The notes under the pieces: model-generated
Seen by the model: only the letters and a program-made list of their open reading frames with translations
The model's database searches: none
Told to the model about the DNA's origin: nothing
Source: Granulicella paludicola
Lineage (GTDB): Bacteria > Acidobacteriota > Terriglobia > Terriglobales > Acidobacteriaceae
Reading direction: 5' to 3'
DNA length: 64,000 bases
NCBI RefSeq assembly: GCF_025685545.1
Contig: NZ_JAGSYC010000026.1
Coordinates: forward strand, 372,001-436,000
Position numbers and translations under genes: made by a program
Part shown: positions 53,856-60,104 of the stretch, piece after piece
How the letters are laid out: each line of letters starts with the position of its first letter
How positions within the stretch are numbered: the first letter of the stretch is position 1

Positions 53856-55127
53856 ATGCCTACCGCCACTCCAACTCGCGACACCTTCGACAGTACACTG
53901 CGCAGTGCACGCTCCACCGTCGCCTTTCGCGAGACTATAAACCTCGCCATCGATAGCTTCAAGAGCAGCAAAACCCGCTTCCTGCTCACCATGCTCGGCA
54001 TGGTCATCGGCTCGGCGTCGATCGTACTCGTCGTCACGGTCGGCCTCACCGGCAAGCAGTATGCGCTCGACACCATCTCCGGCCTCGGACCGAATAAGGT
54101 CGAGATGCAGTACTCCGGCGGCGAGGTGATGGGACCTGACAACGTCAGCTCCCCTGACTACATGACCCGCGAGGACATGAAAGTTGTCGACGATCAGGTA
54201 CCCGGCATCGTTGCCAGTTCGCCTATGTTGGAGTATCACGATCGCATCGCCATTGGAAACGGCATCAGCAAAGACACCATGCTGCTGGGCGTAAGCCCGG
54301 AGTATAAGCAGGTCCGCAACTTGAAGGTGCTCGCTGGCCGTTTCTTTGACGATCAGGACGCCATCACCCATGCCAAGGTCGCCGTCATCTTCACTACGAT
54401 GGCGAAGGAGCTTTTTGGAACCAACTCGCAGGCTGTCGGCCGTACTGTCTCCATACGCGGTATACCCTTCACAGTCATCGGAGTCTTCAAAGAGAGCATC
54501 GACACCTTCGGACAGTCCGAGATCTCCGAGCACACCATGCTCGTACCCTACGAAGTAGCTCGCTACTTCACCGGCTCCGACACGCTGAAGGAGATCTTCT
54601 TCAGCATGTCCTCTCCGCAGGAAGTTGAGCCCGGTGCCGCGAAGATCACGCAGATCATCCACAGTCGTCACCACAGCACCAGCGTCTATAAAGCCCAGAC
54701 GCTTACCGACATTCTGCAGACGATGAATAAGATCGCGAATATGTTGAACGTTGTGCTGGTGCTCGGCGCGATTATTACACTGGTCGTCTCCGGCGTGGGC
54801 ATCATGAACTCGATGCTGGCGAACGTGCAGTCGCGCATCCGCGAGATCGGTATCCGCAAAGCTCTCGGCGCCACAAGCCGCGAGATCCGCCTGCAATTCC
54901 TCACCGAAGCGGTGTTCCTCTCGCTCTCCGGGGGCCTGATCGGCACGGTCCTTGGCCTGATGCTTCCGCTGAGCGTACGCCTCTTCACCGACTTCGCCAT
55001 TCCGATGTCCTGGCTCAGCGCCATCATCGCACTGCTGACCTCGGTCATCGTAGGCATCATCTTCGGTACCCTGCCCGCCAATCGTGCAGCCCGCCTCGAT
55101 CCCGTGACCACGCTCAAATACGAGTGA
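53856..55127 (+). CDS. MacB/FtsX-type ABC transporter permease
   Basis: A 423-residue membrane protein. One N-terminal helix (TRFLLTMLGMVIGSASIVLVVTVGLTG, in part) is followed by a periplasmic MacB-like domain, residues about 75-300 (LGPNKVEMQYSGG, SPDYMTREDMKVV, LAGRFFDDQD). Three C-terminal helices then carry the FtsX motif VSGVGIMNSMLANVQSRIREIGIRKALGA split across the loop. It would pair with an ATPase and adaptor for export or lipoprotein work, but neither gene is next to it. ATG 53856 is chosen; the ORF continues 49 codons upstream with Cys-rich, non-conserved sequence. Confidence 0.85.
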   Translation: MPTATPTRDTFDSTLRSARSTVAFRETINLAIDSFKSSKTRFLLTMLGMVIGSASIVLVVTVGLTGKQYALDTISGLGPNKVEMQYSGGEVMGPDNVSSPDYMTREDMKVVDDQVPGIVASSPMLEYHDRIAIGNGISKDTMLLGVSPEYKQVRNLKVLAGRFFDDQDAITHAKVAVIFTTMAKELFGTNSQAVGRTVSIRGIPFTVIGVFKESIDTFGQSEISEHTMLVPYEVARYFTGSDTLKEIFFSMSSPQEVEPGAAKITQIIHSRHHSTSVYKAQTLTDILQTMNKIANMLNVVLVLGAIITLVVSGVGIMNSMLANVQSRIREIGIRKALGATSREIRLQFLTEAVFLSLSGGLIGTVLGLMLPLSVRLFTDFAIPMSWLSAIIALLTSVIVGIIFGTLPANRAARLDPVTTLKYE

Positions 55128-55222
55128 TGGATATCTAGAACCGTTTGTCTTTTTAACTCCAACACTGACCCTTTCTCCGCCGTCCGACCGCTGAGATGCT
55201 CCTAACGGATTTGAGAATGCAC

Positions 55223-55264
55223 AACACTCAACACTCAACACTCAACACTCAACACTCAACACTC
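55223..55264 (+). repeat. six tandem AACACTC heptamers
   Basis: Six exact copies of AACACTC in a row. An ATG lies at 55217-55219, with GGAT and GAGA just upstream. With six copies the ATG frame stops at 55283-55285. The long ORF frame differs by one base, and a change to seven or four copies would join them. Heptamer tracts are known sites of replication slippage. Confidence 0.85.
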
Positions 55265-55419
55265 AATCAGAGTTTGAAAGTGTAGGTGGGCTTGCTTCCT
55301 GGCTTACAGGAATTTTTTGCGCTGCTGTTACAACCGTTTGCGCTGCTGTCGCGGTTCTTTACGCATGGCATTGGCCTCTCTTTGGGGACGAAGGAATTTT
55401 TCACTACATTGTCTTTGCG
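55261..55419 (+). other. N-terminal coding part of the glycosyltransferase-like gene, no start codon in frame
   Basis: In the frame of the ORF at 55420 this segment translates to a hydrophobic helix LASWLTGIFCAAVTTVCAAV, then VLYAWHWPLFGDEGIFHYIV. This is the conserved first helix and DEG loop of GT-C-type enzymes. The frame is open from 55195 but has no ATG, GTG or TTG before 55420. Confidence 0.75.
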
Positions 55420-56793
55420 ATGCGGCATGGTGCGAAGCCCTACGTTGACCTGAAGGATTTCAATTTTCCGGGAACCTATTTTCTGGAGTTTGTCGAGGTT
55501 CATTTCGTAGGCGCAGGCGATCAAGCCGCACGGATTTATGATCTGGCCCTTTGTATAGCGGCGGGTCTCGGCATGTGGCTTTGCTCGGAACGGCGCTACT
55601 GGCCCAAGGTGGGTGCGCTATGTGCCGCAGCCCTTTTGACACTGTTTCATCTACAGGACGGACTGGCTCAGGTCGGCCAGCGGGATTTTGCGATAGCGGC
55701 TTTGGCTCTCATCGCCTGCGGTGCGTTTCTCCGTTTGTCTCGCAGCTACCTACTTAGCTTGTTCGTCTTTGAAGCTTTCGTTGGACTAGCAGTCACCATA
55801 AAGCCTACTATCTTCCTACTCTTCTGGCTTCCCGTAATTTTGAGGTACGACGGCGAGCGTACCTCCAGCCGTATAAAGGCAAGCATTACTGGAGTTTGCG
55901 GAGCCCTTCTGGCACCATCACTGGCACTGATCTGGCTTTTTCGCAATCACGCCCTTCTTGGCTTCATGCGAGATATTCAAAAGTTAGGTGCGGTTCATGC
56001 GAGCTTAGGTCGCAAGTCTTTTGTCTTCCTGCTCGTGCATTCGGTTTCCCCCGTAATCAGTTTGGTACTCGTCTGCTCCGCCTTGACTGGCTTGGCAGCA
56101 TATAAACATATCCATATCTGGTCACGTTCGCTTAGAGTGGTTGCATTCGCCGCACTCTCTGGATTCGTTTCCTATCTTTGCCAAGGCAAGGGGCTATCAT
56201 ATCAACGCTATCCTTTGTTGGGACCGCTGCTGCTTTTATGCTGCATTGTCTTGGTAAAGATGATCGAGCAAAAAGACAGATCACGGTATCTGTCACTAGC
56301 TGCACTCACTGTTTTTAGTTTTTGGTTCGCACTGCAGGCCACTAGCAAGACTGCCTCCTATGAGGCTTTAGCTCCGCTGGAGACGGAGCTTCAGACAGAT
56401 CTCGCAGCCGCCCAGCGTCTCGTTCCCGGAAGGGTCCAGTGTCTTGATACCTATAGCGGTTGTTTAGCCACGCTTTACAATATGCGCCAGGTTCAGGACA
56501 CCGGATATTTATACGACTGCTATTTCTTTACGCAGGATTCCCAGGAGCAGAAGGAGTATCGCGCCGATTTCATATCCGCTATAACTGCGTCTTTGCCTGG
56601 TCAGATCGTGATTACTAATCAGGATTGCTTTGCAGAGAACGCTGGCTTTTCGAGGCTCGACCGTTGGCCGCAACTCGCCACTCTTCTGCAAATGCACTAC
56701 AAGCTATACGAGTCATGGCAGGCAGACCGGCAATATAAGTTGTGGAGCAGGTCGCAAAAGCAACCGGAGTTTCGGATTTACATATTGCGCTAG
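55420..56793 (+). CDS. GT-C-type glycosyltransferase-like membrane protein, possibly phase-variable
   Basis: The 457 residues from the first in-frame ATG contain about ten hydrophobic helices. Examples are LALCIAAGLGMWLC, LFVFEAFVGLAVTIKPTIFLL and YPLLGPLLLLCCIVLVKMIE. A soluble C-terminal part of about 130 residues follows (VQCLDTYSGCLATLYNMR). PYVDLKDFNFPGTYFLEF near residue 9 is typical of the second loop in GT39-like lipid-linked sugar transferases. The conserved DEG motif lies upstream of this ATG, so the real protein must begin earlier. Codon use is more AT-rich than in its neighbours, suggesting transfer. Function inferred: surface glycan assembly. Confidence 0.65.
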   Translation: MRHGAKPYVDLKDFNFPGTYFLEFVEVHFVGAGDQAARIYDLALCIAAGLGMWLCSERRYWPKVGALCAAALLTLFHLQDGLAQVGQRDFAIAALALIACGAFLRLSRSYLLSLFVFEAFVGLAVTIKPTIFLLFWLPVILRYDGERTSSRIKASITGVCGALLAPSLALIWLFRNHALLGFMRDIQKLGAVHASLGRKSFVFLLVHSVSPVISLVLVCSALTGLAAYKHIHIWSRSLRVVAFAALSGFVSYLCQGKGLSYQRYPLLGPLLLLCCIVLVKMIEQKDRSRYLSLAALTVFSFWFALQATSKTASYEALAPLETELQTDLAAAQRLVPGRVQCLDTYSGCLATLYNMRQVQDTGYLYDCYFFTQDSQEQKEYRADFISAITASLPGQIVITNQDCFAENAGFSRLDRWPQLATLLQMHYKLYESWQADRQYKLWSRSQKQPEFRIYILR

Positions 56794-56836
56794 CTGGAAA
56801 CACTTAGGAAGCATATCTATAACTAGCCCAAAACAG

Positions 56837-56871
56837 CAACGCCCCACTTCAATGAAGTGGGGCGTTGTTTT
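56837..56871. terminator. bidirectional terminator
   Basis: A 14-bp perfect stem, CAACGCCCCACTTC and complement, 3-base loop, followed by TTTTG and preceded by AAAACAG, between the converging glycosyltransferase-like gene and rplI. Confidence 0.9.
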
Positions 56872-56889
56872 GAGAATTGCCAGTAAAAA

Positions 56890-57423
56890 CTACTCGCGCT
56901 GGAAGTCCACTTCACCCTTGTAGGTGGAGCGGAATGCCGTGTCGTCGTCTTCCGGGGTTGCCGAGATCGGCTTCTCTGGAGCGTCGCTCTTGATCGTCAC
57001 CTGCAGGTGGGCCGAAACCTCACGGTGCAGCTTGATCGGCACATGGAACTCGCCCACGGTGCGGAGTGGGTTTTCGAGGTGGATCTTGCGGCGGTCCACC
57101 TTGTAGCCCTGGTTCTCGAGCTCGTGCGCGATGTCCGACGAGGTGACAGAACCGAACAGCTGATCGCTGTCGCCGGTCTTGCGCTCGAAGGTGAGCACCA
57201 GCTCGTTGAGCTTGGCTGCGAGCTCTTCCGCGCCGCCCTTTTCAGAGGCCGACTTGCGGACGGCCGAAGCCTTCATCTGCTCGATGACTGCTTTATTCGC
57301 AGGCGTGGCCTCGATGGCCAGCTTGCCGGGCAGCAGGTAGTTGCGGCCGTAGCCGGCTGCAACCTTCACGACATCGCCGCGATGGCCCAGCTTGTTTACG
57401 TCTTCTTTGAGAATCACTTCCAT
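56890..57423 (-). CDS. rplI: 50S ribosomal protein L9
   Basis: A 177-residue protein. The N-domain MEVILKEDVNKLGHRGDVVK followed by GYGRNYLLPGKLAIEAT is the L9 signature that binds 23S rRNA. A long helix, residues about 45-80, links to the C-domain (GSVTSSDIAHELENQGYKVD, then VHIKLHREV-like VPIKLHREVSAHLQVTI). The C-terminus is 20-25 residues longer than most L9 proteins (SATPEDDDTAFRSTYKGE). GGAGA six bases before ATG 57423 supports the start. It is the last gene of the rpsF-rpsR-rplI group. Confidence 0.96.
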   Translation of the reverse strand: MEVILKEDVNKLGHRGDVVKVAAGYGRNYLLPGKLAIEATPANKAVIEQMKASAVRKSASEKGGAEELAAKLNELVLTFERKTGDSDQLFGSVTSSDIAHELENQGYKVDRRKIHLENPLRTVGEFHVPIKLHREVSAHLQVTIKSDAPEKPISATPEDDDTAFRSTYKGEVDFQRE

Positions 57424-57486
57424 GACTGTTCTCCAAATACTGCGTGCACAGAGCTCTGTGCGGTAGGAACCTTGGGTCCGCCGGGT

Positions 57487-57867
57487 TTAGTACTTCGCGG
57501 CGTAGGGCAGAAGGGCGATCGCGCGGGCCTGCTTGATGGCGCGCGTCAGCTTGCGCTGGAACGGAGCCGAGGTGCCCGAGAGACGGCGCGGGATGATCTT
57601 GCCGCGGTCCGACACGAACTGCTGAAGCAGGCGCACATCGCGGTAGCTGATCGTGTCGATCTTCTCTACCGTGAACTTGCAGACCTTCTTGCGGCGGAAG
57701 AACTTGCGTCCGCCAGGACCGCCACCAGGACCACCCGCAGGACGCGGAGGACGTGCGCCCGCAGGACGCGTTCCCTGATAACCCGTACGTGCCGCCGGAG
57801 CGGAAGCCGTAGCACCCTCAGCCGGAGCCGCGGGAGTTGCTGCTTGATTCACAATCTCATCAGCCAT
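57487..57867 (-). CDS. rpsR: 30S ribosomal protein S18 with N-terminal extension
   Basis: A 126-residue protein. Residues about 53-126 are a normal S18: [40 protein letters not shown] and [14 protein letters not shown]. The first 50 residues are an Ala/Pro/Gly/Arg-rich extension ([19 protein letters not shown]) absent from the bacterial model protein. S18 sits on the 30S platform with S6 and S11. AAAGGAT eight bases before ATG 57867 supports translation from the long start. Confidence 0.95.
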
Positions 57868-58059
57868 GTTGCTTATCCTTTGTCTGACCGGAATCCTTCA
57901 TCTGAAGTCTCCAGCCCGGTTTTGCTGCGCTTGCTCCGAACCCGCGTTGGGGTTCCTGGACTCGGTCAAACCTTGCTGACCTTGGAAGCACTCTGCAGCG
58001 TTGCTCTCGTCCTCATCAGCCGAACGCGCAACTGCGTGTCCGGCGAAACTCTTGTGTAC

Positions 58060-58536
58060 TTAGACCTGTGCGGCGACGGGCTCAGCAGCTTCAGCAGCGG
58101 GCTCGGCAACCGGCTCGGCTGCAACAGCAGCGGGCGCGGCAACAGGAGCTTCGGTAGCAGCAGCGGCTTCAGCGTTGACCTGCGGCAGAGCGGAGCGCTT
58201 CACGTGCGCATCGCGGTGCTTCTTGATCTTGGCGACGCGCTTGTCTTCCTCATCCGTGCGAACGGTGATGAACTTGATCACCTGCTCCGACACGCGCAGA
58301 CGGCGCTCGAGTTCGGAGATCAGCGACGCGGGCGCTTCAATGATCAGCAGGAGGTAGAAGCCATCGTTGAACTTGTTGACCGTGTAGGCTAGGCGACGAC
58401 GGCCCATCTTCTCGGTCGAACGGATCGTGCCGCCGCCGGTCGTAACATAGCCGGAGAACGTTTCGATCAGCTTGTCGAGCTCAGCCTCATCAACGTCCGG
58501 CCGAACGATAAACATCACTTCATAAGAGCGATTCAT
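58060..58536 (-). CDS. rpsF: 30S ribosomal protein S6 with Ala/Glu/Pro tail
   Basis: A 158-residue protein. The S6 core is MNRSYEVMFIVRPDVDEAEL, TEKMGRRRLAYTVNKFNDGFY in part and RLRVSEQVIKFITVR, about 100 residues, forming the S18 partner on the 30S platform. The last 50-55 residues are Ala/Glu/Val/Pro-rich (AATEAPVAAPAAVAAEPVA), reminiscent of S6 proteins whose C-terminus receives extra glutamates. ATG 58536 is preferred to the upstream in-frame ATG at 58569. A 192-base gap, without the ssb gene often found here, separates it from rpsR. Confidence 0.95.
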   Translation of the reverse strand: MNRSYEVMFIVRPDVDEAELDKLIETFSGYVTTGGGTIRSTEKMGRRRLAYTVNKFNDGFYLLLIIEAPASLISELERRLRVSEQVIKFITVRTDEEDKRVAKIKKHRDAHVKRSALPQVNAEAAAATEAPVAAPAAVAAEPVAEPAAEAAEPVAAQV

Positions 58537-58638
58537 AGTTACTTCTTTCTGCGGGGTTCTGCCCCGCACCGCTTCGGTCTGCTTCCTACCGAAACCGGTG
58601 TGGAAGATTGTTGCTTCCTTGCTGCTTATTACTGCTGC

Positions 58639-59238
58639 TTACGTACTCTCAGGTTCAACCTTGCGATTGAACTCATTCATCGCTGCGCTGACACCCTTCG
58701 TCAGCACAACCTCAACCGCTCGTACAGCCCGGTCGAGCACTTCGTCCAACTCTGCCAACTCCTGCTTGCGCATCGGAGCCAACAGGAAATCCTTGCCGCC
58801 GGCCTTGATCACTCGGCCGGATTCGAGAGGCGGCTTGCCGACTCCGATCCGAACGCGAAACCAATCCTGCGTCCCAAGCTCAGCGGAGATCGACTTCACT
58901 CCGTTATGCCCGGCTGCCGATCCACGCTCTGCCAATCGCAGGGTGCCCAACGGAAATGCAAGCTCGTCATAGAGAACGATCAGGTCCTCGACACCAAGCC
59001 CTAACTCTTTCAGCAGAGCGGCTACCGAGAGCCCGCTCAGGTTCATGAAGGTTCCCGGCTTTGCCAGTAGAACTTCATGTCCCATCAACCTTGTCTTCGC
59101 GGTCATTGCCCGGCCGCGAAAATTGGTGACCTGCACATCGCATAGCCTAGCAATGCGATCGATCGCCATAAAACCAGCATTGTGCGGCGTCGTTGCGTAC
59201 TCCGGACCAGGATTCCCAAGACCGACAATCAACTTCAT
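58639..59238 (-). CDS. pth: peptidyl-tRNA hydrolase
   Basis: A 199-residue enzyme that frees tRNA from stalled peptidyl-tRNA in the cytoplasm. The signature MKLIVGLGNPGPEYATTPHN contains the catalytic His at residue 19-20 and conserved Asn. AKPGTFMNLSGLSVAALL, LIVLYDELAFPLGTLRL and GSAAGHNGVKSISAELGTQD follow as usual. AAAGGAG seven bases before ATG 59238 supports the start. It lies between rplY and rpsF on the reverse strand. Confidence 0.97.
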   Translation of the reverse strand: MKLIVGLGNPGPEYATTPHNAGFMAIDRIARLCDVQVTNFRGRAMTAKTRLMGHEVLLAKPGTFMNLSGLSVAALLKELGLGVEDLIVLYDELAFPLGTLRLAERGSAAGHNGVKSISAELGTQDWFRVRIGVGKPPLESGRVIKAGGKDFLLAPMRKQELAELDEVLDRAVRAVEVVLTKGVSAAMNEFNRKVEPEST

Positions 59239-59262
59239 CGTTCTTCTCCTTTAGAGAAGAAC

Positions 59263-59344
59263 GAGTGATAAGTGCAGAGTGATAAGTGATAAGTCATATT
59301 AGCCATCGTCTTACTTCTCACTTAACACTTGTCACTTACCACTC
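59263..59344. repeat. inverted heptamer-repeat hairpin
   Basis: Two 32-base arms (59263-59294 and 59313-59344) built of ACTTNNC-type heptamers, imperfectly complementary, around an 18-base loop. They fill most of the gap between rplY and pth. A different heptamer tract lies at 55223. Confidence 0.7.
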
Positions 59345-59351
59345 TTCCAAA

Positions 59352-60014
59352 CTACTTCTTCGCAGTGTCGGCAGCAGGAGCATCCTGCTTACCCTTCTTC
59401 GCTACTTCAGGCTCGGCCGGTGCAACCTCTTCAGCTATCTCTTCCTTGATCACAGTTACGTGAGCAACGAGAGCATTCTCTTCGCCGAGGAACTTGATGT
59501 TGTCGCTGTGCGGCAGGTCGGAGATGTGGATCGCGCCGTTGAGCTCCAGGTTCGAAACGTCGATGTCGATGTGGCTTGGGATGTTGTCCGGGAGGCACTC
59601 GATCTCGACCTCGTGCAGAACCTGGCCAAGCAGACCGCCGCTGGTCTTCACGCCCACAGGCGTTCCGACGAGCTGAACGGGAACCGATACGCGCATGGTC
59701 TTGTTCATTGCGATGCGCTTGAGGTCGATGTGCAGCAGCTTGCCCTTGATGGGCTCGTTCTGCCAGTCGACGATCATGACCTTTGTGTTGCCATGACCTT
59801 CGATGGACAGATCAAAAATCGTGTTGTGACCTGACTCCGAGTACAGAATCTTGGTGATCACCTTGGGGTCGACCGTAACGGCGACCGAGTCCTGCCCAGC
59901 GCCGTAAACCACTGCGGGAATCAAGCCCTGAACGCGCACGCGGCGTGCATGGTTCTTGTTGAAGGTGCCCGTGCGGGGCGTTGCGACGACTGCGTCAATC
60001 TTGGTGCTTGCCAT
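59352..60014 (-). CDS. rplY: 50S ribosomal protein L25 (CTC/general stress type)
   Basis: A 220-residue, two-domain L25 (TL5/CTC type) that binds 5S rRNA. N-domain: NKNHARRVRVQGLIPAVVYG and IFDLSIEGHGNTKVMIVDWQ. C-domain: VSVPVQLVGTPVGVKTSGG, LPDNIPSHIDIDVSNLELNG and IHISDLPHSDNIKFL. The tail is Lys/Ala/Glu/Pro-rich (EVAPAEPEVAKKGKQDAPAA). ATG 60014 is chosen because AAAGGA lies eight bases upstream; the frame's earlier start at 60065 adds no conserved sequence. It is located between prs and pth, a conserved order. Confidence 0.94.
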   Translation of the reverse strand: MASTKIDAVVATPRTGTFNKNHARRVRVQGLIPAVVYGAGQDSVAVTVDPKVITKILYSESGHNTIFDLSIEGHGNTKVMIVDWQNEPIKGKLLHIDLKRIAMNKTMRVSVPVQLVGTPVGVKTSGGLLGQVLHEVEIECLPDNIPSHIDIDVSNLELNGAIHISDLPHSDNIKFLGEENALVAHVTVIKEEIAEEVAPAEPEVAKKGKQDAPAADTAKK

Positions 60015-60104
60015 TTTCGTTGTCCTTTCGGGCACGAGGTTGAGCCTCGCTCCCTTTTCTTGCAACTCACAAAACTCTGCAACCTACAAAAACTCTTGTG
60101 GAGA

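What the first reader, a model, noticed from the sequence alone, without database searches (positions are those of the whole stretch)
55195..56793. Heptamer tract likely switches a membrane glycosyltransferase-like gene on and off
Seen: ATG at 55217, then six exact AACACTC copies (55223-55264), then a coding frame shifted by one base. The large ORF is open back to 55195, yet has no ATG, GTG or TTG before 55420. The segment 55261-55419 still codes for the conserved first helix and the DEG loop. Arithmetic: the distance from the ATG to the ORF frame leaves remainder 2 modulo 3, so seven (or four) copies restore one continuous protein, while six copies stop at 55285. Known: tandem repeats whose unit is not a multiple of three cause phase variation in surface-glycan genes of several pathogens. 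Inferred: this is a contingency locus in an environmental acidobacterium, and the assembly captured the OFF state.
Basis: partly seen in the sequence, partly recalled or inferred. Interest (0 to 1): 0.82.

Follow-up and report, generated by a model that had tools for sequence, protein, structure and literature searches.

The report
Repeat-switched membrane sugar-transferase gene, caught OFF
In a soil bacterium, a six-fold seven-letter DNA repeat directly behind the start codon throws an otherwise intact membrane glycosyltransferase gene out of frame, which looks like a slippage-driven on/off switch of the kind known from pathogens, though switching itself has not been shown.

Summary
Six exact AACACTC copies follow ATG 55217 and put the gene out of frame; that ATG frame stops at 55285. 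The large open frame has no ATG/GTG/TTG before 55420. The part before 55420 is real protein: all 78 homologue loci checked have an in-frame start before the conserved W motif. It holds transmembrane helix 1 and an Asp invariant in both alignments. The model (pLDDT 91) matches GT-C transferases such as PglB and ArnT. None of the 78 has a heptamer run there, so the tract looks lineage-specific. The closest precedent is E. coli neuO: AAGACTC repeats two bases after the start codon, one letter different.

Two findings temper this. In 1.264 Mb sampled (25% of the genome) it is the only frame-shifting exact tandem run at a gene start, so no wider phase-variable repertoire is visible. Heptamer arrays, mostly intergenic, are also widespread in this genome and class, so the run could be an accident that recently killed the gene. 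Copy-number variation, the decisive evidence, could not be tested. Verdict: probable contingency locus in the OFF state; new member of a known kind.

The parts
55217..55219 (+). Most likely start codon (ATG); a GGA lies seven bases upstream (weak ribosome site at best)
   Evidence: Sequence. With one heptamer it would lie about 40 codons before the conserved W (hand count), against 39 in the nearest homologue
55222..55266 (+). Heptamer tract, 6.4 copies; six AACACTC at 55223-55264
   Evidence: unique in the genome as three copies in a row
55217..55285 (+). Short OFF-state frame, ends at TAG 55283-55285
55195..56793 (+). Open frame of the GT-C type membrane transferase; 55195-55216 is probably non-coding
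55282..55419 (+). Segment lost if translation began at ATG 55420: helix 1 (residues 8-37 counted from 55261) and the invariant Asp codon 55387-55389
   Evidence: Alignments A1 and A2, model, coordinates
55420..55422 (+). First standard start codon in the open frame; probably an internal Met
   Evidence: no GGAG-like stretch in the 25 bases before it
56837..56867 (-). Strong terminator-like hairpin (14 pairs) between the convergent transferase gene and rplI
   Evidence: Consensus scan only

Best explanation
The tract is a translational contingency locus. DNA-strand slippage at the heptamer run just after the start codon adds or drops seven-base units. One, four, seven or ten copies put ATG 55217 in frame with the membrane transferase (ON); other counts stop early (OFF). 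The sequenced genome has six copies, OFF. Shown here: the tract, the frame arithmetic, the coding nature of the segment behind it, the intact rest of the gene, and that homologues have ordinary starts. Inferred: that copy number changes often enough to matter, that the ON product is made, and that it modifies a cell-envelope glycan or protein using a polyprenyl-linked sugar.
For: Perfect, uninterrupted run two bases after the start codon with a unit not divisible by three. Frame logic. Conserved protein segment behind it: W, P and D invariant and Y near-invariant in A1 before 55420. A standard in-frame start before the W motif in 26 of 26 genome-search loci and 52 of 52 named loci that include the N-terminus. 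The rest of the frame is intact to the C-terminus, so any inactivation is recent or reversible. The same architecture is a proven switch in neuO. The target is a glycosyltransferase-type enzyme, a common kind of phase-variable gene (recalled).
Against: No copy-number variation was or could be observed: one genome per species, no reads. No homologue carries a tract. Tracts of this kind are rare in the genome: no wider phasome in a 25% sample. Six copies is a short run. No promoter-like site was found near it by consensus scan, and the ribosome site is weak. The gene is accessory (16 of 27 other same-genus genomes) and a paralogue with a normal start exists on contig 25.
Confidence: 0.55

Rival explanations
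1. Accidental inactivation. The genome's general tendency to amplify heptamers produced the run inside a dispensable accessory gene, which is now a fresh pseudogene.
For: Heptamer arrays occur at 15 other places in this genome, and three more exact heptamer runs of another sequence lie in the 1.264-Mb sample, at places where there is no gene start to switch. The gene is absent from 11 of 27 other same-genus genomes, some of them incomplete. Two of 52 named homologues have a frame broken further downstream (L208, L213; metagenome assemblies, so possibly errors).
Against: The remaining 510 codons are open and align to the end; a pure 45-base run shows no decay. The place, two bases after the start codon, is what a switch needs.
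Confidence: 0.3
2. The protein is made constitutively from a non-standard start (for example ATT) or from ATG 55420, or by ribosomal frameshifting in the tract.
For: ATG 55420 gives a 457-residue ORF, the start an automatic annotation would be likely to choose.
Against: The ATT codons lie inside or after helix 1. A start at 55420 loses helix 1 and the invariant Asp and has no ribosome site. Homologues start well before it. No known frameshift signal was seen, but none was systematically sought.
Confidence: 0.07
3. Assembly or sequencing error in the copy number.
For: Tandem runs are prone to collapse, and a mixed population would be assembled as one state (general knowledge).
Against: A 45-base run is shorter than ordinary short reads (recalled), and the genome is rated 100% complete in 26 contigs. 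Even if true, the switch hypothesis would stand.
Confidence: 0.05

Closest known systems
neuO of E. coli K1 (CUS-3 prophage), heptanucleotide AAGACTC contingency locus
   Same: Heptanucleotide run two nucleotides after the start codon; frame restored by every third copy number; glycan-modifying enzyme; the unit differs by one letter, and three units encode KTQDSRL there and NTQHSTL here in the same register.
   Different: NeuO is a soluble left-handed beta-helix O-acetyltransferase, not a GT-C membrane protein; ON needs n = 0 mod 3 there, 1 mod 3 here; variation is proven there (3 to 53 repeats in 64 genomes) and untested here. The likeness is convergence, not kinship.
Haemophilus influenzae heptanucleotide SSRs (hmw1A/hmw2A and others)
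   Same: Heptanucleotide tracts tied to phase-variable surface genes (passages of PMC2651432).
   Different: The hmw tracts lie mostly upstream in promoters and tune transcription; here the run lies in the coding start.
Intergenic heptamer arrays: GGGAATC in Xanthomonas, GGGGATT in Nostoc, TAACTGA in Beggiatoaceae
   Same: Heptamer unit; heptamers reported as over-represented among bacterial SSRs (passages of PMC4692102 and PMC4679880).
   Different: Those are mostly intergenic; this run is in a coding start and shifts its frame.
GT-C glycosyltransferases (PglB, AglB, ArnT, OST, DPY19)
   Same: Fold: all 12 Foldseek matches at E <= 0.001 are of this kind (probability 1.00); an invariant Asp just after helix 1.
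   Different: 9-13% identity and TM-scores (query) 0.46-0.58 in those 12 rows; Pfam PMT_2 below its cut-off (18.6 against 26.1 bits); no PDB chain by sequence profile; substrate unknown.

Membership tests
SSR-mediated translational contingency locus | Perfect tandem run, unit not a multiple of three, in or at the 5' coding end | tested here: met
SSR-mediated translational contingency locus | Frame behind the run is a conserved, otherwise intact gene | tested here: met
SSR-mediated translational contingency locus | Copy number varies between cells or strains | not testable with these tools
SSR-mediated translational contingency locus | Reversible ON/OFF expression | not testable with these tools
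   Needs culture
SSR-mediated translational contingency locus | Usually several such loci in a genome (typical, not defining) | tested here: inconclusive
   No second one at a crude ORF start in a 1.264-Mb sample; three-quarters of the genome not scanned for all units
NeuO family | Left-handed beta-helix O-acetyltransferase | tested here: not met
   GT-C fold predicted and matched
GT-C glycosyltransferase superfamily | Multi-helix GT-C fold with an acidic residue in the loop after helix 1 | tested here: met
   the catalytic role of that residue is recalled from PglB/ArnT
GT-C glycosyltransferase superfamily | Curated family model above its cut-off | tested here: not met
   PMT_2 18.6 of 26.1 bits; LIC_10190_fam 23 of 100 bits
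Terriglobia CACTNNY heptamer arrays (named here) | Unit CACTNNY, intergenic, often with an inverted partner array | tested here: not met
   Third variable base is A here; 49 of 51 units in a hand-picked list of 17 other matches from this genome have C or T. Lies in a coding start; no GAGTGTT partner within 54000-57500

The most novel reading that the evidence does not exclude
Terriglobia carry a heptamer-amplifying process that keeps remaking seven-base arrays with a species-specific unit. In this genome that process has been captured at a coding start as a glycan switch, convergent with neuO in position, unit size and almost in sequence. It would be the first translational contingency locus in an acidobacterium and an example of how such switches are born.
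Probability: 0.2. Interest if true: 0.75.

Novelty: new member of a known kind. Interest (0 to 1): 0.52.

Why it matters
Slippage-based phase variation is described mostly from host-associated bacteria (general knowledge); a 2025 review expects gaps to be filled for ocean and soil bacteria (PMC11868660, passages). A soil acidobacterium with a neuO-like switch on a glycosyltransferase would make it testable whether phage or protist pressure in soil selects the same device. A conventional ORF call (457 residues from 55420) would hide the switch from annotation.

Tried and rejected
Non-standard or internal start: rejected, see rivals. The tract as a member of the CACTNNY hairpin arrays: considered because the unit contains CACT; unit, location and lack of an inverted partner speak against it. 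A recurrent tract in homologues: looked for in 26 genome-search loci and 52 of the 60 named loci (8 dropped because the match lacks the N-terminus: L216, L218-L222, L225, L227). In the 300 bases before the W motif the only non-triplet runs of at least three copies and 12 bases were CGCGC x3.2 in L173 and GC x6 in L176 (for L198, L200, L208, L223 and L226, which that script skipped, the earlier one search found no non-triplet run in L198, L200, L208 and L223 and TTCG x3.2 in L226). One search estimated the motif position from the tblastn start, so its distances are approximate; it first reported L180 and L191 as lacking a start, and inspection showed an in-frame ATG in both. The recount gave 26 of 26 and 47 of 52; the other five had been missed because their motif differs or their frame is short, and each shows a start on inspection.

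Plasmid BLAST: no match. A first named-genome scan with the single protein: 107 pattern stretches, no relative; the scan with alignment A1 gave 60 loci. Single-sequence structure prediction failed (pLDDT 41); with 20 sequences 91. Rfam at gathering thresholds on 54900-60100: no match. Promoter scan on 55000-57000: none.

Literature on Acidobacteria with phase variation, SSRs, heptamers or palindromes; listings and abstract beginnings only, at most 20 papers listed per search of up to 225 holding the terms. No listed title concerns phase variation or heptamer arrays in Acidobacteria; unlisted papers were not seen. PMC13001214, PMC3046976, PMC2651432, PMC4692102, PMC4679880 and PMC11868660 were seen as listings and passages only.

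Full report
Observation. The sequence is as described. ATG 55217 is followed by CA and then a perfect run of period seven (55222-55266, 6.4 copies; six AACACTC at 55223-55264). In that frame TAG comes at 55283-55285. The other frame is open from 55195 to 56793 and has no ATG, GTG or TTG before 55420. Of 1-10 copies, 1, 4, 7 and 10 join ATG and open frame. Three AACACTC in a row occur nowhere else in the 4,960,117-base genome, and a 20-base version of the pattern in 0 of 40 other genomes.

The segment before 55420 is coding. Homologues (E <= 0.001) were found in 16 of 27 other same-genus genomes and, weakly, in 1 of 33 more distant ones, plus a paralogue on contig 25 of this genome. Alignment A1 (16 rows) has W, P and D invariant and Y near-invariant at codons 55372, 55375, 55387 and 55405, all before 55420; in the wider set the P is not fixed. 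All 26 genome-search loci shown and all 52 named loci that include the N-terminus (records titled Granulicella, Edaphobacter, Bryocella, Silvibacterium, Acidipila, Terriglobus and others, and one titled Verrucomicrobia) have an in-frame standard start before the W motif. In the nearest homologue (43%, G007) the ATG lies 39 codons before the W; ATG 55217 with one heptamer would lie 40 codons before it (hand count). The simplest history is an ordinary start followed by one AACACTC-like stretch that later expanded.

The protein. With 20 sequences AlphaFold2 gave mean pLDDT 91.0 and pTM 0.91. Foldseek's 12 matches at E <= 0.001 are all GT-C transferases: PglB, AglB, ArnT, yeast and human OST, DPY19, at 9-13% identity. 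Sequence libraries see little: PMT_2 at 18.6 bits, below its cut-off of 26.1, and in 5 of 16 members at E <= 0.01; LIC_10190_fam at 23 bits, below its cut-off of 100; no PDB chain by profile up to E = 1. Helix 8-37 and the invariant Asp 43 (numbering from 55261) would be missing from a product that starts at 55420, so such a product is unlikely to work; the catalytic role of this Asp is by analogy with PglB and ArnT (recalled).

The locus. In G007 the neighbourhood is conserved (window proteins for a dipeptidase-like, a RidA-like, an amine-oxidase-like and a MacB-like gene, rplI, rpsR, rpsF, pth, rplY, prs; names recalled or from the sequence, not from a family search), and the transferase gene lies in the same interval between the permease and rplI but inverted. 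In the 10 other relatives whose fetched stretch holds both flanks, no transferase match lies in the stretch and the interval is about 0.25 to 4.1 kb; in 8 further relatives the permease was not in the stretch. So the gene is accessory and sits in a variable interval. Its G+C is 51% (G007 homologue 54%; 60% in a 464-kb genome sample).

Background in this genome. I sampled 60 stretches of 20 kb plus the window (1.264 of 4.96 Mb). Exact runs of at least three copies and 16 bases with units of 2-15: five of unit 6, four of unit 7, one of unit 14, no other. By crude ORF calls the other three heptamer runs are intergenic (two) or at the 3' end of an ORF (one), and the 14-mer run is at a 3' end. Homopolymers of nine or more: three C-runs (9, 11, 12), whose relation to genes was not examined. 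So no SSR phasome is visible, but a liking for heptamers is. A whole-genome search for four CACTNNN units finds 39 overlapping matches, which I group into 16 arrays, the tract being one. By crude ORF of the other 15 are intergenic or overlap an ORF end by at most about five bases, and 5 fall inside long, possibly spurious ORFs. Such arrays occur in 16 of 28 same-genus genomes and 77 of 151 genomes drawn from the class (both counts include this genome). The control, the pattern read backwards, also matches: 12 times in this genome, and in some class members more often than the pattern (for example G071, 32 against 2). It may hit the same arrays in another register, which I did not check, so the class-wide count shows heptamer periodicity better than the exact motif. 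The tract is not a typical member: its unit is CACTCAA, whereas 49 of 51 units in a hand-picked list of 17 other matches end in C or T.

Mechanism. Most likely, slippage changes the copy number and so the frame, as in neuO, where AAGACTC repeats start two bases after the start codon, full translation needs a multiple of three, and every three repeats encode RLKTQDS (passages of PMC3046976 and PMC13001214). Three AACACTC encode NTQHSTL against KTQDSRL for neuO in the same register. The folds are unrelated, so the likeness is convergence. A captured OFF state is not unusual: 42 of 64 neuO-bearing genomes had counts that are not a multiple of three.

What weakens it. Nothing here shows that the number varies. 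The gene is dispensable across the genus, a paralogue with a normal start exists, no homologue checked has such a tract, two named homologues look frame-broken further downstream (L208, L213; possibly assembly errors), and heptamer runs arise in this genome where there is nothing to switch. A recent accidental inactivation explains the same sequence; the intact 510 codons only say that it must be recent. I put the switch at 0.55 and accidental inactivation at 0.3.

Novelty. As a device it is a known kind. In Acidobacteria I saw no report in the searches, which cover open-licence PubMed Central only and were read as capped listings.

Noticed in passing
59239-59351 (rplY-pth intergenic) and the same interval in 14 relatives: The interval folds into a long hairpin whose arms are tandem heptamers. 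In 10 of the 14 genomes with an interval of at least 50 bases (this one included; a 15th, G013, was too short) lag 7 is the best of lags 4-12 and the fold is far below shuffles (z -4.4 to -8.7; mononucleotide shuffles). The unit differs between species (about CACTTAT, TAGACAG, CTCTACA, CACTAAC, ACTGACA) while the arms stay complementary; G001, G005, G014 and G004 do not show it. This looks like an element family with concerted turnover, worth its own study.
   Followed up: partly
Own genome (16 arrays), 16 of 28 same-genus and 77 of 151 class genomes: Mostly intergenic CACTNNN heptamer arrays, often as inverted pairs tens of bases apart; some class members have over 200 overlapping matches (G057 232, G065 251). 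The reversed-pattern control also matches in many. Not found in searches.
   Followed up: partly
55128-56889 (permease-rplI interval): The transferase gene lies in this interval in only one other relative seen (G007), in the opposite orientation; in 10 others the interval is 0.25-4.1 kb without it. Possible hot spot for gene gain or inversion.
   Followed up: partly
L108:9379-9435, L118:4785-4820, L166:3124-3155: Other exact heptamer runs in the genome: GGGAGTA x8.1, CTAAGAG x5.1, GGGAGTA x4.6; two intergenic, one at the 3' end of a crude ORF.
   Followed up: no
L118:4284, L145:5478, L151:18058: C-runs of 9-12 in a similar context (CCCT or CCCTA just before the run); possibly another repeated element.
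   Followed up: no
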